Positions 43,698 to 48,691 of a stretch of DNA of 64,000 nucleotides are shown here, piece by piece. Position numbers and translations under genes: made by a program. Position 1 is the stretch's first letter, and every line of letters starts with the position of its first letter. Source of the stretch: Streptomyces canus (lineage in GTDB: Bacteria; Actinomycetota; Actinomycetes; Streptomycetales; Streptomycetaceae); contig NZ_JAUSWW010000001.1 in the NCBI RefSeq assembly GCF_030815415.1, forward strand, positions 7,998,001 through 8,062,000, written 5' to 3'. A model generated the notes under the pieces. The model was not told the origin of the DNA and searched no databases. It was given only the letters and a program-made list of their open reading frames with translations.

Positions 43698-44927
43698 ATG
43701 CATGCCTGGCCCGCTTCCGAGGTCCCCGCCCTGCCTGGTCAGGGCCGCGACCTGAGGATCCACGACACCGCGACCGGTGGCTTGGTCTCCCTTGCCCCCG
43801 GTCCTGTCGCCCGTCTCTACGTGTGCGGCATCACGCCGTACGACGCGACCCACATGGGACACGCGGCGACGTACAACGCGTTCGACCTCGTTCAGCGCGT
43901 GTGGCTCGACACCAAGCGGCAGGTTCACTACGTCCAGAACGTCACCGACATCGACGACCCGCTCCTGGAGCGCGCCGAGCGGGACAGCGTCGACTGGGCC
44001 GCCCTCGCCGAGAAGGAGACGACTCTCTTCCGCGAGGACATGACCGCCCTGCGGATGCTGCCGCCCCAGCACTACATCGGCGCGGTCGAGGCGATACCCG
44101 GGATCGTCCCGCTCGTCGAACGGCTGCGGGACGCGGGCGCCGCGTACGAACTCGAAGGGGACGTCTACTTCTCCGTCGAGTCCGACCCGAACTTCGGCAA
44201 GGTCTCGAACCTCGACGCCACCGCCATGCGGCTGCTGTCCGCCGAGCGCGGCGGCGACCCGGACCGTCCGGGCAAGAAGAACCCGCTCGACCCGATGCTG
44301 TGGCTGGCCGCCCGTGAGGGCGAGCCGAGCTGGGACGGCGGCTCGCTGGGCCGCGGTCGGCCCGGCTGGCACATCGAGTGCGTCGCCATCGCCCTCGACC
44401 ACCTGGGCATGGGCTTCGACGTCCAGGGCGGCGGCTCCGACCTCGCCTTCCCGCACCACGAGATGGGCGCCTCGCACGCCCAGGTGCTGACCGGCGAGTT
44501 CCCCATGGCCAAGGCGTACGTCCACGCCGGCATGGTCGCCCTGCACGGCGAGAAGATGTCCAAGTCCAAGGGCAACCTGGTCTTCGTCTCGAAGCTGCGC
44601 TACGACGGCGTCGACCCGGTCGCGATCCGGCTCGCCCTGCTGGCCCACCACTACCGGGCCGACTGGGAGTGGACCGACCAGGTGCTCGAGGACGCCGTCG
44701 CCCGGCTCGGACGGTGGCGTGCCGCCGTCTCCCGGCCCGACGGTCCGTCCGCCGACGCCCTCGTGGAGGAGATCCGCGAGGCCCTGGCGAACGACCTCGA
44801 CGCCCCCACCGCGCTGGCCGCCGTGGACCGCTGGGCGGCGCGGCAGCAGGAGCAGGGCGGCACGGACGAGGGCGCACCCGGCCTCGTGTCGCGGGCTGTG
44901 GACGCGCTGCTGGGCGTAGCGCTCTAG
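43698..44927 (+). CDS. mshC: Cysteine:GlcN-Ins ligase, mycothiol biosynthesis
   Basis: 409 residues, class I cysteinyl-tRNA-synthetase fold. The HIGH-type motif is [12 protein letters not shown], the Zn Cys is in [13 protein letters not shown], the second part shows [13 protein letters not shown] and the KMSKS motif [13 protein letters not shown] (about 285). It ligates cysteine to glucosaminyl-inositol, the third step of mycothiol synthesis. It lacks the anticodon-binding domain of CysS, which separates the two. The N-terminus [18 protein letters not shown] is typical for MshC. Last gene of the conserved cluster; a 44-base palindrome follows. Confidence 0.94.
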
Positions 44928-44939
44928 ACAGAACAGAGA

Positions 44940-44983
44940 CGAGGGCGCTTCCGCCACGTGGCCACGTGGCGGAAGCGCCCTCG
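44940..44983. terminator. 44-base perfect palindrome between convergent genes
   Basis: Two arms of 22 bases with no mismatch and no unpaired centre; the core is CCACGTGGCCACGTGG. It lies 13 bases after mshC and 26 before the stop of the convergent Gln-rich gene, so a bidirectional terminator is the simplest reading. Confidence 0.8.
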
Positions 44984-45008: not shown

Positions 45009-45686
45009 TCAGAGCCGCTGGATCCTGACGCTGCGCAGCACGTTCGGGGACTGGGTGTCCCAGACGCCGATCACCTGGTGGCCGAAGGCGAAGGCCTCCT
45101 GGATCTGCTGCTGGATCTGCGGGATCGGGTTGTTGAGGACCCGGAACTGGTTGTTGATGCGCAGGAAGATCTGCCGTGGCTGGCCCTGGAGCGGCTGGAT
45201 GATGTCGATGAAGCCGTTGGCCACACCGGCCGCCAGAGGCTGCGCCTGGACCTGCTGAGCGACCTGCTGGACCACTTGCTGCACGATCTGCTGGAGATGC
45301 TGCTGCACCTGCTGCTCGATCTGCTGCGCCTGCTGGTCCTGCTGCTGGCTCTGCTGGTCCTGCTGCTGCCCCTGTTGGCTCTGCTGCTGACCGAGCTGCT
45401 GGAGCAGCTGCTGGAACGGCTGCTGCCGGCCGAGCTGCTGGAGCTGCTCCAGCGAGCCGCCCCCCATGCCGAACGGCTGCTGCTGGCCCTGTTGGGCGTA
45501 GCCCTGCTGACCTTGCTGGCCCTGCTGTCCTTGCTGGCCGAAGCCCTGCTGCCCGTACGGCTGTTGCTGCTGGCCGAAGCCCTGCTGGCCGAACGGCTGC
45601 TGCTGTTGCTGCTGGTACGGCGAAGTGCTCGGGAACTGCTGTCCCTGCTGTTGTCCCAGTTGGCTCATCTGCGGGGTGGTGCTCAT
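45009..45686 (-). CDS. Glutamine-rich low-complexity protein with a C-terminal module shared with the S8 peptidase
   Basis: 225 residues, 87 of them Gln by hand count. Residues 1-75 are Q/G/F/Y-rich repeats (FGQQGFGQQ, GQQGQQGQQGYAQQ), like prion-type condensate-forming segments. About 85-150 is an amphipathic helix made of hydrophobic-hydrophobic-Gln-Gln tetrads (HLQQIVQQVVQQVAQQV). The last 70 residues are ordered; RVLNNPIPQIQQQIQEAFAF-G-x4-GVW aligns with the tail of the neighbouring peptidase (NLNHPSPEIRQAVHAAFAGG...VW). No signal peptide. It is 42 bases downstream of the peptidase gene in the same direction. Family unknown to me. Confidence 0.8.
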   Translation of the reverse strand: MSTTPQMSQLGQQQGQQFPSTSPYQQQQQQPFGQQGFGQQQQPYGQQGFGQQGQQGQQGQQGYAQQGQQQPFGMGGGSLEQLQQLGRQQPFQQLLQQLGQQQSQQGQQQDQQSQQQDQQAQQIEQQVQQHLQQIVQQVVQQVAQQVQAQPLAAGVANGFIDIIQPLQGQPRQIFLRINNQFRVLNNPIPQIQQQIQEAFAFGHQVIGVWDTQSPNVLRSVRIQRL

Positions 45687-45728
45687 GCGGGTGCCACCTT
45701 CCCTGGTGATGGTGGGGATGTGTCGCCG

Positions 45729-47459
45729 TCAGCCAGTGACGACCAGACCGACGATCTCGTCGTCCGCGAACCACACGCGGACGTCGGGGCGTCCCCCCGC
45801 GAACGCGGCGTGCACCGCCTGGCGGATCTCGGGGGACGGGTGGTTCAGGTTCCGCCAGCCGCCGGCCACGAACAGCCGGAGCCTGGGCGGGAGTTCGCGC
45901 GGATACGGCAGCAGTTCGTCCCAGTACCGCTCGGCCTGGCCGGAGCCGACCGCGTGCGGCAGCAGATGGGTCACCGCCGCCTTGATGTCGGGCCGGTTGC
46001 CGATCCGCTGGGAGGCGGGCCGGCCCGGCGCGTCCTGCTGCGGGGCCCCGGTCGCCCGCAGCACCGCGCGGGCACGCTCCGGGGACATCGGAGCCTGGGC
46101 GGCCGCCCTGAGCATGCCCTGCAGCGCGGCCAGGGCGCCGACCACCATCGGAGAGGCCGAGGAGGTCCCGGAGAACGTGTCCGTGTACCAGGCGATCTCC
46201 TCGGGCCCGCCCTGCAGGTCGCCGGGCTTGTCCCAGAAGCCGCCGGTGGTCGTGACCTCGCGTCCCCAGCCCTGGGCGTCCACCCGGGCACCGTAGTTGG
46301 AGAACGCGAGCCGTGACCGGTCCGGTCCGTGGTCGCGGCCGTGTGTGCCGGGCGGCGGGGCGCCCGCGCCGACCAGGACGGCACCGGAGGACTGGTTGGA
46401 CGGGTTGAACGGGTTGCGCCACCACTCGGGGAACTCGTCGGGGCGGCGCTCGTAGACCGCGTCGTCGAGGGACTCGCCGCCGTTGCCGGCGGCCGCCACG
46501 ACGAGGACGCCCTTGGCGGTGGCGTGGCGGACGGCCGCGAAGTCGTCCGGCCACCACTCCAGGGCGATGTAGCCGCGCTGGTCGTCGCGTTCGGCGAACT
46601 CCGACCGCGGTCCGGGCCGGTGGAGTTCGACGAGGACGATGTCGCCGGGGCCGAGCCGGTCCGCCGCCGCGTGGATCGCGGCCGCGGTGCCGATGCCCTG
46701 GAAGGACGCGGCCGCGGTGGTCGCCTCCGGCACGATGCCGGTGACGCCGTGCTCGCCCTGGTCGCCGCCGATCACCCCGATCACGGCGGTGCCGTGGTTG
46801 CGCCAGGCGATGTCGGTCAGCGGGGTGCCGACCACGACACCGGCCAGCTTGGCGGCCAGGTCCTCATGGCCCAGCTGCCAGGAGCCCTCGACGTCGATCA
46901 CGGTCACGTCCTGACCGGTACCGCCGGGCCGCTGCCAGGCCCAGTGCGCGTCGATCCCCTCGGGCGCCGGCCGCAGATAGCCCTGCCGGCTGCTGAAGTC
47001 CGATGTGACCGGGGCGCCTTCCTTCAGCCGGCCGCTCTCCTCGCCGATCTGCTGGAGGGCGGCGGGTACGGCGCCCGGCTTCACGTACGCGGTGTCGACG
47101 CCCGGCAGCGCGGCGATCCGCGAGCGCAGTTCCTCGGCGCGGCTGCGGTCGCCGCGCACCCGGTAGAACAGCGCGAGGTCGGGCACGTTCTCGGAGCCCG
47201 AGACGGCCGACTGCTGCAACCTTTCCTCGCTTCCGAACAGCGGTTCAAGAGCGAGCTGTTCGTCGCTGAGGAACATGTTGAGGGCCGAGACGTCGGCGCC
47301 CGCCGCCGACCGGACGCCGTCGGCCTGGGCGCGCAGCCGGGCCTCGGGACGGGCGACGACGATCAGTTCCTGTTCGGCTCCTCGATAGGTGAATCCCGCT
47401 CCGTCGGGCCCCGGCCCGGACGTTCCTGGGCCCTGCTCCGGCTGTACCTGGTCGGTCAT
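45729..47459 (-). CDS. S8 (subtilisin-like) serine peptidase without signal peptide
   Basis: 576 residues. A 180-residue N-terminal domain (YRGAEQELIVVARPEARLRA) precedes the protease. Triad: Asp in VTVIDVEGSW (about 188), His in WRNHGTAVIGVIGG (about 222), Ser in FSGTSSASPMVVGAL (about 431). The C-terminal module NLNHPSPEIRQAVHAAFAGG matches the end of the Gln-rich neighbour. Absence of a signal peptide suggests cytoplasmic action or a contact-dependent system. ATG 47459 has GGGGAG ahead. The two genes form a leftward operon whose partner or substrate relationship is inferred from the shared tail. Confidence 0.87.
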   Translation of the reverse strand: MTDQVQPEQGPGTSGPGPDGAGFTYRGAEQELIVVARPEARLRAQADGVRSAAGADVSALNMFLSDEQLALEPLFGSEERLQQSAVSGSENVPDLALFYRVRGDRSRAEELRSRIAALPGVDTAYVKPGAVPAALQQIGEESGRLKEGAPVTSDFSSRQGYLRPAPEGIDAHWAWQRPGGTGQDVTVIDVEGSWQLGHEDLAAKLAGVVVGTPLTDIAWRNHGTAVIGVIGGDQGEHGVTGIVPEATTAAASFQGIGTAAAIHAAADRLGPGDIVLVELHRPGPRSEFAERDDQRGYIALEWWPDDFAAVRHATAKGVLVVAAAGNGGESLDDAVYERRPDEFPEWWRNPFNPSNQSSGAVLVGAGAPPPGTHGRDHGPDRSRLAFSNYGARVDAQGWGREVTTTGGFWDKPGDLQGGPEEIAWYTDTFSGTSSASPMVVGALAALQGMLRAAAQAPMSPERARAVLRATGAPQQDAPGRPASQRIGNRPDIKAAVTHLLPHAVGSGQAERYWDELLPYPRELPPRLRLFVAGGWRNLNHPSPEIRQAVHAAFAGGRPDVRVWFADDEIVGLVVTG

Positions 47460-47734
47460 CGGGTTCCGCTCCCCTCGGTCCTTGCGGGTGCCTGGTTGCG
47501 GGTGGTGAGCCTCCGTGGGACAACCAAGCACTCCGACGGCGCCTCGTCCAGCCCGTGTTCGCCAACTCGGTTTGGAAACAAGCTGAGTTGGGTACCGTGT
47601 GCAATCCGTCCTGAAACAGATGTCACGTGGCAATCCGGCCAAAGACTGCGGAGGCGACGGTCATGTGATGGGGTGAGAGCGCCTGTTGACCGTTCGGCCG
47701 ACCCATCCGTCGGCCCTTGGCAGAAGGACGCACA

Positions 47735-48691
47735 GTGGCACCCACAGATCGTTCCTTCGCACGTCGAAGACTCCTCACCACGACCGCGGCGCTGACGGGA
47801 GCAGCGCTGCTCGGCGGCACGGCCCACGCAGCCGAGAAGCCGAAGGGCGCCTGGCCCGACCGGTTCCCGCTGCCCGACGGCTTCCAGCCCGAGGGCATAG
47901 CCATCGGCACGAAACCCTTCGCGTACTTCGGTTCCCTCGCCGACGGCGACATCTACCGGGCGAGCCTCGCCACCGGCCGGGGCTCCGTGATCAGCAAGGG
48001 CCTCGGCGCGGGCCACCCGACCGTCGGCCTGAAGATCGACGGGCACGGCCGTCGGCTGTTCCTCGCCGGCGGCGACAGCGGCGAGATCCGCACGGTGCAC
48101 GTCCGCTCCGGCGAGATCGAGAAGGTGTACGCCACCGGGGGCACCTTCGTGAACGATGTGATCCTCACCCCGGGCGCCGCCTGGTTCACCGACTCGTTCA
48201 AACCGCAGCTCTACAGGCTGAGCCTCGGCAAGCACGGCGAGCCCCAGGGCGTCGAGACCGTCCCGCTGACCGGTGATTGGGTCCAGGGCGACGACTTCAC
48301 CGCCAACGGCATCGAGCGCACCCCCGACGGCCGCGCCCTGCTCGTGGTGAACGCCTTCGCCGACGGCGGCACCCTCGAACGGGTCGACCCGCGCACCGGA
48401 GTCGCCCGCGCCGTCGACCTCGGCGGCTCCAAGATCCCCAACGGGGACGGCCTGTTGCTGCTCGGTCGGACCCTCTACGTCGTCCAGCAGCGGCAGAACG
48501 CGATCGATGTGTTCCGGCTGAACGCCGCCGGCACGAAGGGCACGGCGATCGTCAGGATCACCGACTCCCGCTTCCGCATCCCGACGACCGTCGCGGCCTG
48601 GGGCGAGAAGCTGTATCTGCCCAACGCCCGCTTCGACGTGGAACCGACGCCCGACACCGATTACGACGTCGTGGCGGTACCGCAGGTGTGA
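47735..48691 (+). CDS. SMP-30/gluconolactonase-like exported beta-propeller protein
   Basis: 318 residues. Tat-like signal (FARRRLLTTTAALTGAALLG) then a beta-propeller: PLPDGFQPEGIAIGTKPFAY, FLAGGDSGEIRTV, VNDVILTPGAAWFTDSFKPQ, ANGIERTPDGRALLVVNAF and GDGLLLLGRTLYVVQQRQN. Blade spacing fits SMP-30/strictosidine-synthase-like lactonases; some relatives are labelled superoxide dismutase in databases without basis. GTG 47735 with AGAAGGA upstream. Divergent from the S8 peptidase. Confidence 0.75.
   Translation: MAPTDRSFARRRLLTTTAALTGAALLGGTAHAAEKPKGAWPDRFPLPDGFQPEGIAIGTKPFAYFGSLADGDIYRASLATGRGSVISKGLGAGHPTVGLKIDGHGRRLFLAGGDSGEIRTVHVRSGEIEKVYATGGTFVNDVILTPGAAWFTDSFKPQLYRLSLGKHGEPQGVETVPLTGDWVQGDDFTANGIERTPDGRALLVVNAFADGGTLERVDPRTGVARAVDLGGSKIPNGDGLLLLGRTLYVVQQRQNAIDVFRLNAAGTKGTAIVRITDSRFRIPTTVAAWGEKLYLPNARFDVEPTPDTDYDVVAVPQV

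What the first reader, a model, noticed from the sequence alone, without database searches (positions are those of the whole stretch)
45009..47459. S8 peptidase and Gln-rich low-complexity protein share a C-terminal module
Direct observation: the peptidase tail NLNHPSPEIRQAVHAAFAGG...VW and the Gln-rich protein tail VLNNPIPQIQQQIQEAFAFG...VW align over 27 positions from LN to the residue after VW with 12 identities. The genes are 42 bases apart, same strand. The Gln-rich protein is about 39% Gln, with a prion-like Q/G/F/Y N-terminus and [hydrophobic-hydrophobic-Gln-Gln] helix tetrads. Neither protein has a signal peptide. Inference: the shared module is a homotypic docking domain, so the Gln-rich protein is a scaffold, condensate-forming adaptor, activator or substrate of the peptidase. 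I know of no described system like this.
Basis: partly seen in the sequence, partly recalled or inferred. Interest (0 to 1): 0.8.

Follow-up and report, generated by a model that had tools for sequence, protein, structure and literature searches.

The report
Protease and Gln-rich neighbour share a domain
In some soil Streptomyces a protease and the glutamine-rich protein encoded next to it end in the same small folded domain, which suggests that the two are built to assemble together; an archaeon has a close relative of the protease with the same arrangement but an unrelated domain.

Summary
The domain is an OB-fold by prediction (pLDDT 92.9), has no significant Pfam match, and its strong matches lie only in this pair and only in Streptomyces among the genomes searched. 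94 of 98 distinct peptidases keep the partner. The pair is an optional two-gene cassette between mshC and PAC2. A close relative of the peptidase in Haloferax has an unrelated C-terminal module, and the gene 62 bases downstream is a stand-alone copy of that module. An actinobacterium shows the same tail-plus-copy layout on a beta-propeller protein. Other relatives lack it (1 of 19 loci has it; 13 of the 19 have a tail at all). Best reading: a coupling domain that recruits the peptidase to a Gln-rich scaffold, working like effector-associated domains. Binding, condensation and output are untested; co-evolution of the copies is weak.

The parts
45729..47459 (-). S8 (subtilase) peptidase gene, 576 aa plus stop, first gene of the pair
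   Evidence: Pfam PF00082 E 2.7e-12; H222, N326, S433 in 107 of 107 and D189 in 104 of 107 orthologous loci
47055..47375 (-). N-terminal domain of the peptidase (residues 29-135), no significant Pfam or PDB sequence match
   Evidence: Aligns in Haloferax, Nostoc and Mycetohabitans relatives; no match; modelled alpha/beta at block pLDDT 64-83 apart from a weak stretch at 83-89
45975..46982 (-). Subtilase catalytic domain (about residues 160-495); D189 at 46893-46895, H222 at 46794-46796, S433 at 46161-46163
   Evidence: bounds approximate
45732..45956 (-). C-terminal module of the peptidase (residues 502-576), copy 1 of the shared domain
   Evidence: same order of strands and helix as the partner copy in the fused model, at modest confidence (block pLDDT 57-78, last block 40)
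45009..45686 (-). Gln-rich partner gene, 225 aa plus stop, second gene of the pair
   Evidence: partner found next to 102 of 107 peptidase loci, 94 of 98 distinct
45252..45686 (-). Gln-rich, nearly uncharged N-terminal region of the partner (residues 1-145)
   Evidence: Median 42% Gln and 2.7% charged in 102 partners; start motif MSTTPQM..QQ.PST.P in most of 27 diverse partners, three begin MTTQMNP
45390..45452 (-). Conserved Gln-rich block of the partner (LEQLQQLGRQQPFQQLLQQLG, residues 79-99)
   Evidence: Many invariant or nearly invariant columns in 27 diverse partners
45012..45251 (-). C-terminal module of the partner (residues 146-225), copy 2 of the shared domain, predicted OB-fold
   Evidence: AlphaFold2 pLDDT 92.9, pTM 0.81
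44940..44983 (.). Perfect 22+22 base palindrome between the pair and convergent mshC, likely two-way terminator

Best explanation
The shared C-terminal domain is a coupling (co-assembly) domain. One copy sits on a subtilase without a visible export signal, the other on a Gln-rich, uncharged, prion-like protein encoded directly downstream. The two proteins associate through this OB-fold (with itself or in mixed oligomers); the Gln-rich region clusters the complexes, and clustering recruits, localises or switches on the peptidase. Shown here: homology of the two tails, conserved gene pairing, conserved catalytic residues, a compact folded domain by prediction, and the same layout with an unrelated domain in an archaeal relative. 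Inferred: the binding, the clustering, the control of the peptidase and its substrate.
For: Homologous tails. 94 of 98 distinct peptidases carry the partner directly downstream. Of 36 Streptomyces genomes (of 246) with a strong match, 32 have both copies, 4 the peptidase copy only, none the partner alone (one of the 4, G168, has its peptidase split over two contigs). Optional cassette: mshC and PAC2 are both found at 80 of 81 long peptidase loci and lie 110-732 bases apart in 7 of 8 genomes without the pair. Domain predicted with high confidence as an OB-fold; the highest matches are OB-fold B subunits of Shiga-type toxins (Z up to 7.4), which form homopentamers (established knowledge). Haloferax: same peptidase family (57.5% identity over residues 29-500), unrelated C-terminal module, stand-alone copy 62 bases downstream, 78% identical. 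Actinobacterium G472: the Haloferax-type module ends a beta-propeller protein and a stand-alone copy starts 9 bases after its stop. The partner keeps its Gln-richness (20-39%, median 31%, of 102) and a conserved Gln block.
Against: The two copies are only about 28% identical, and the partner copy changes fast (mean distance 0.46 against 0.13 for the peptidase copy). They fall on the two sides of one branch, so one old split. Correlation of their distances beyond species relatedness is weak (partial r 0.09, permutation p 0.02; partner copy against peptidase core 0.20). Four distinct peptidases (five loci) keep the module without a partner. Only 1 of 19 non-Streptomyces relatives examined shows a second copy nearby; 6 of the 19 have no tail to copy. 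Fold matches stay below Z 8, with best Foldseek E 0.016. The fused model gives no usable docking.
Confidence: 0.45

Rival explanations
1. Substrate docking: the partner is the peptidase's own substrate. The shared domain brings it to the enzyme, which cuts the Gln-rich part and so releases or dissolves it, perhaps after a signal.
For: Adjacent downstream gene, fast-changing partner, conserved linear motifs at the N-terminus and centre of the partner, active-site residues kept in nearly all loci.
Against: In Haloferax and G472 the second copy is the bare module with nothing left to cut. Two peptidases without D189 (L109, L117) still have partners.
Confidence: 0.2
2. Ligand-binding ring: the domain is a B-subunit-like OB-fold that recognises a glycan or other ligand. 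Bare or Gln-tagged copies build a ring on which the peptidase rides, as in subtilase AB5 proteins but inside or released from the cell.
For: The 13 top rows of the structure comparison are Shiga-type B subunits (Z 6.4-7.4); enzyme gene then small-domain gene; other members of the S8 family end in CBM5/12, DUF346 or FG-GAP-like stretches (the last below its cut-off).
Against: 9-15% identity, best Foldseek E 0.016, Z below 8, other OB-folds close behind (SilF, eIF5A, PriB, SSB). No signal peptide seen in either protein (by eye). Only five residues are invariant over both copies, so a shared ligand site is not evident.
Confidence: 0.15
3. Antagonist or titrator: the second copy competes with the peptidase's module for its target or for oligomer formation and so keeps the enzyme in check.
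For: Bare copies in Haloferax and G472 look like dominant-negative versions; genomes with the peptidase alone are seen, genomes with the partner alone are not.
Against: Does not need the conserved Gln-rich region. Three of the four distinct partner-less peptidases keep the whole triad (only L035 lost D189), which an inhibitor role would make costly; the D189 loss in L035 fits this reading, though.
Confidence: 0.12
4. Relic of a duplication: the domain was copied onto a neighbouring Gln-rich gene and the two proteins no longer interact.
For: Weak co-evolution and strong divergence.
Against: 94 of 98 distinct peptidases keep the partner; core residues of the fold remain in both copies; an unrelated domain shows the same layout with the same peptidase family.
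Confidence: 0.08

Closest known systems
Effector-associated domain (EAD) coupling in bacterial conflict systems (Kaur et al. 2020, PMC7159879; passages, section read)
   Same: A small non-enzymatic domain is present once on an enzyme (often a peptidase) and again in a protein from the adjacent gene; proposed there to couple the two by homotypic contact.
   Different: None of the described core components (VMAP, iSTAND, Ubl, GAP1) was seen among the immediate neighbours; the partner carries a Gln-rich region, not an enzyme or core component; no significant Pfam match for the domain; in Streptomyces the two copies are an old split, each alike across species.
NucA-peptidase systems with S8 domains (same paper, section read)
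   Same: S8 and trypsin-like peptidases in compact operons; some relatives of this S8 family lie near trypsin-like peptidases or a DNA/RNA non-specific endonuclease on plasmids.
   Different: No nuclease or second peptidase was seen among the genes flanking the Streptomyces pair.
Subtilase AB5 complexes and OB-fold B subunits (PMC2943149, start of abstract seen; fold matches; gene order recalled)
   Same: Subtilase gene followed by a gene with a small OB-fold domain; nearest solved folds are Shiga-type B subunits.
   Different: No signal peptides seen, no significant sequence relation, the domain is also fused to the enzyme itself, Gln-rich extension on the partner.
Death-fold and prion-like signalosome scaffolds (recalled, no call)
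   Same: Enzyme recruited by a domain shared with a polymer-forming adaptor.
   Different: Different folds; polymer formation is not shown here.

Membership tests
Peptidase family S8 (subtilases) | Subtilase domain with Asp-His-Ser triad | tested here: met
   PF00082 E 2.7e-12; D 104, H 107, N 107, S 107 of 107 orthologous loci
Type VII mycosin (MycP) | NCBIfam TIGR03921 at its cut-off | tested here: not met
   35.7 bits against a cut-off of 278.75; no signal peptide or membrane anchor seen by eye
Effector-associated domains (EADs) | Same small non-enzymatic domain on an effector or signalling enzyme and on a protein of the adjacent gene | tested here: met
Effector-associated domains (EADs) | One copy fused to a core component (VMAP, iSTAND, Ubl, GAP1) | tested here: not met
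   Neighbours scanned are mshC, PAC2, a GntR regulator and genes of unknown function; the module has no other strong carrier in 246 genus genomes
Effector-associated domains (EADs) | Adjacent copies more alike than copies elsewhere | tested here: not met
   All 89 partner copies and all 94 peptidase copies fall on opposite sides of one branch, support 100/100. In Haloferax the feature is met (78% within the pair against 45-63% to copies of other genomes)
Effector-associated domains (EADs) | Match to a described EAD model | tested here: inconclusive
   No Pfam family better than E 0.027 for any of 45 rows; which Pfam models stand for EADs was not checked
AB5 B subunits | OB-fold of about 70 residues | tested here: inconclusive
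   OB topology predicted; best Z 7.4, rmsd 2.2, 65 aligned; best Foldseek E 0.016
AB5 B subunits | Secreted, signal peptide | tested here: not met
   No signal peptide seen (by eye, no predictor)
AB5 B subunits | Homopentamer | not testable with these tools
   Needs a multimer prediction or an experiment
Prion-like proteins | Q/N-rich, uncharged low-complexity region | tested here: met
   N part median 42% Gln, 2.7% charged in 102 partners
Prion-like proteins | Self-propagating or phase-separated assembly | not testable with these tools
   Experiment needed
Known anti-phage defence proteins | Match to a PADLOC model | tested here: not met
   0 families at E 0.1 for both window proteins and the Haloferax pair

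The most novel reading that the evidence does not exclude
A cross-domain family of subtilases without export signals works by interchangeable C-terminal assembly modules, each matched by a second copy next door. In Streptomyces the second copy carries a Gln-rich, prion-like region, so that the pair forms a minimal bacterial signalosome: a self-assembling Gln-rich scaffold that gathers and switches on a protease through a B-subunit-like OB domain.
Probability: 0.2. Interest if true: 0.85.

Novelty: new variant of a known kind. Interest (0 to 1): 0.6.

Why it matters
If the domain couples the two proteins, it gives a two-gene, genetically simple model for how a prion-like bacterial protein could control a protease, a question mostly studied in eukaryotic cell-death and immune signalling. 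It also adds a domain family without a Pfam match and suggests that one peptidase family can use unrelated coupling modules in bacteria and archaea, which predicts where to look for more pairs.

Tried and rejected
Other carriers of the module: weak hits outside the pair (loci L164-L167, E 0.003-0.009) cover 36-47 columns of 80 and are taken as chance. The 35-38% identical S8 genes match the catalytic core only; the one examined, L161, starts with what looks like a signal peptide and resembles a mycosin (label recalled). Relation of the Streptomyces and Haloferax modules: none seen (hhalign probability 0.1).

More tail-plus-copy cases: none in the 18 other S8 relatives examined with phmmer at E 0.05 (13 of the 16 plasmid records, the phage record and the five actinobacteria; the two Proteus and the Sodalis records were not examined). 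Six of the 19 have under 12 residues after the core, so nothing to copy. In L175 another S8 gene nearby matches the core, and in L187 two ORFs match the full-length protein weakly (E 0.001-0.002); neither matches a tail. The Haloferax module was found in 2 of 296 Actinomycetota genomes (G472 and G708), in no plasmid other than that of Haloferax, in no viral contig and in no other of 24 genomes of G472's class. G708 carries it without a detected copy. Viral-contig scans for the peptidase: none for the Haloferax query; two distant loci for A3 that were not studied.

Docking from one fused chain: AlphaFold2 on peptidase plus read-through plus partner gave mean pLDDT 47 and no usable interface; mainly the two modules, the N-domain and a helix before the partner module are modelled. 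Its fold comparison repeats the OB result for the partner copy. Viral fold library: nothing below E 0.001. Literature: searches showed no paper on this pair, judged from the listings, some of which are capped; only open-licence PMC papers are held.

A slip mended: the first look for remnants of a lost partner printed only five lines per locus and could not bear the claim; one search repeats it in full.
Full report
WHAT IS THERE. The window lies in a 10.8 Mb genome of three contigs whose nearest named relatives are Streptomyces. On the minus strand an S8 peptidase of 576 aa (45729-47459) is followed after 42 bases by a 225-aa protein with 87 Gln (45009-45686). Downstream, a convergent gene (43698-44927; Pfam tRNA-synt_1e; the name mshC is recalled) is separated from the pair by a perfect 22+22 base palindrome. 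Upstream lie a divergent gene without a Pfam match and a PAC2-family gene.

IS IT MORE THAN CHANCE. Yes. The tails score 73 against a maximum of 49 in 5,000 shuffles. In each of 102 pairs none of 200 shuffles reached the true score, while the partner tail against the rest of its peptidase scores at most 40. Alignments of 90 distinct partner tails and 95 distinct peptidase tails match by hhalign at probability 98.1, E 9e-14, 67 columns. The common domain runs over about 75 residues; A, L, R, A and F are invariant over both sets in 54 rows, and G, P, P and G nearly so. Identity between the two copies averages 28%, range 19-38%.

HOW WIDESPREAD. One search kept the best 80 of 186 confirmed loci, so the sample leans to close relatives. 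Of the 118 loci then held, 107 gave a long peptidase match; dropped before the count were three short or partial ones (L036, L037, L038), the generic S8 locus L006, and seven further S8 loci of the window's own genome without a match. A Gln-rich same-strand ORF (over 15% Gln, at least 60 aa, starting within 1,000 bases) follows in 102 of 107; counting identical peptidases once, in 94 of 98. The four without it are L029 (= L118), L034, L035 and L115. For L029/L118, L034 and L115 the mshC gene ends 73-182 bases after the peptidase stop and neither six diverse partners nor the domain profile finds a remnant better than E 0.1; L035's larger locus (L169) gives only chance-level hits too. With a profile of the domain, 37 of 246 Streptomyces genomes match at E 0.01; one of these (G022) is a chance-level hit, leaving 36: 32 with both copies and 4 with the peptidase copy only, none with the partner only. 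In 200 genomes of the family and 396 of the phylum all strong matches are again in Streptomyces and in this pair. G022 also holds a short stretch that looks like a remnant of the peptidase.

A TWO-GENE CASSETTE. mshC and PAC2 are both found at 80 of 81 long peptidase loci (five of the 81 lack the partner; the exception is L169, which has neither). In 8 genomes without the pair (of 12 in which mshC was located) mshC and the aligned part of PAC2 lie 110, 120, 255, 257, 289, 324 and 732 bases apart in seven, and 3,411 in one that has a different gene there.

THE DOMAIN. Predicted alone with 54 rows (31 partner and 23 peptidase copies) it gives pLDDT 92.9 and pTM 0.81, order beta-beta-beta-beta-alpha-beta-beta, an OB-fold by its matches. 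The peptidase's own copy shows the same order of elements in the fused model, at modest confidence. The best solved relatives are Shiga-type B subunits (Foldseek probability 0.99-1.00 but best E 0.016, query TM 0.56-0.60, 9-15% identity; VIA Z 6.4-7.4 for the 13 top rows), followed by SilF, eIF5A, pertussis, PriB and cholera-type B subunits and SSB. Z below 8 may mean only a common arrangement, so I claim the fold, not kinship. No Pfam family is better than E 0.027 for any of 45 rows, and no PDB sequence better than E 0.58.

THE PARTNER. Gln is 20-39% (median 31%) in 102 partners; the region before the last 80 residues has a median of 42% Gln and 2.7% charged residues. Within it the start MSTTPQM..QQ.PST.P is kept in most of 27 diverse partners (three begin MTTQMNP), and a block around LQQLGQQQPFQQLLQQLG is conserved. 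A helix is modelled just before the domain.

THE PEPTIDASE FAMILY ELSEWHERE. The core (about residues 29-500, without the module) has relatives in 16 plasmid records and one phage record and, at E 1e-50, in five actinobacterial genomes other than Streptomyces among 396. The nearest are Haloferax mediterranei (57.5%), Nostoc commune (54.8%), Paenibacillus sp. 37 (53.4%) and Mycetohabitans (47.1%). Their C-terminal ends differ: nothing, an FG-GAP-like stretch below its cut-off, CBM5/12, DUF346 repeats and others. In Haloferax the peptidase ends in a module of about 82 residues with no Pfam match, and the next gene, 62 bases on, is that module alone, 78% identical. That module shows no relation to the Streptomyces one (probability 0.1). 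In an actinobacterium (G472) the same module ends a Sortilin/BNR propeller protein and a bare copy begins 9 bases after its stop, 65% identical. Thus the layout 'tail module plus second copy in the next gene' occurs with two unrelated modules on this peptidase family, and with one of these modules on a second kind of protein. It is not the rule in the family: of 19 relatives outside Streptomyces only Haloferax has it, though six of the 19 have no tail beyond the core. Some relatives lie near trypsin-like peptidases or a non-specific endonuclease, as in the peptidase-nuclease conflict systems of PMC7159879 (section read).

HOW IT MAY WORK. I favour coupling: the domain joins enzyme and Gln-rich scaffold, and clustering controls the enzyme. 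The logic is that of effector-associated domains (PMC7159879, section read). Membership in that class fails on two tested points (no described core component; copies not closest to each other), so I file it as something that works like an EAD pair, not as one.

AGAINST IT. The two sets of copies lie on opposite sides of one branch (few columns, root not known). Distances of the two copies correlate only weakly once species relatedness, taken from mshC, is removed (partial r 0.09, permutation p 0.02; partner copy against peptidase core 0.20; 76 loci). The partner copy differs about 3.5 times as much between species as the peptidase copy. Three of 107 peptidases lack D189: one without a partner (L035), two with (L109, L117). 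Four distinct peptidases do without the partner. Substrate, ligand-ring, antagonist and relic readings remain open and are scored as rivals.

VERDICT. A real domain-sharing gene pair, not described in the papers I could search, conserved in a minority of Streptomyces (36 of 246 genomes with a strong match), with a telling parallel in an archaeon. The mechanism is inferred.

Noticed in passing
L222:5026-8001 (minus; genome G472, an actinobacterium): Sortilin/BNR beta-propeller protein ending in the Haloferax-type module, with a bare copy of the module starting 9 bases after its stop.
   Followed up: partly
L109, L117 (peptidase residue 189): Catalytic Asp replaced by Val although His, Ser and the partner gene are kept; the neighbouring Glu (E191) is invariant in the alignments, so its role may be worth a look.
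   Followed up: no
L217:2147-5233 (minus): In one Streptomyces without the pair, the mshC-PAC2 interval holds an unrelated 1,028-aa ORF (it looks like a glycosyl hydrolase, label recalled); the interval may be a site where genes come and go.
   Followed up: no
L177:4776-6866 (Paenibacillus phage phiERICV): A phage record carries a distant member of the same S8 family with a long C-terminal extension, close to amidase genes; annotated as GlcNAc-binding protein A.
   Followed up: no
L195:2305-7493 (Serratia fonticola plasmid): S8 relative with a CBM5/12 tail lies downstream of a trypsin-like peptidase gene (an IS6 transposase between them) and upstream of a gene annotated as a cytolethal distending toxin B family protein.
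   Followed up: no
L198:5010-5450 (Rhizobium johnstonii plasmid): A gene holding only the N-terminal domain and the first part of the S8 family, downstream of a non-specific endonuclease gene (one small ORF between) and upstream of SIR2 and ATP-binding genes.
   Followed up: no
window 47717-48691, plus strand: Divergent 324-aa ORF upstream of the pair with what looks like a signal peptide (by eye) and no Pfam match; a relative is found at only 38 of 81 long peptidase loci.
   Followed up: no
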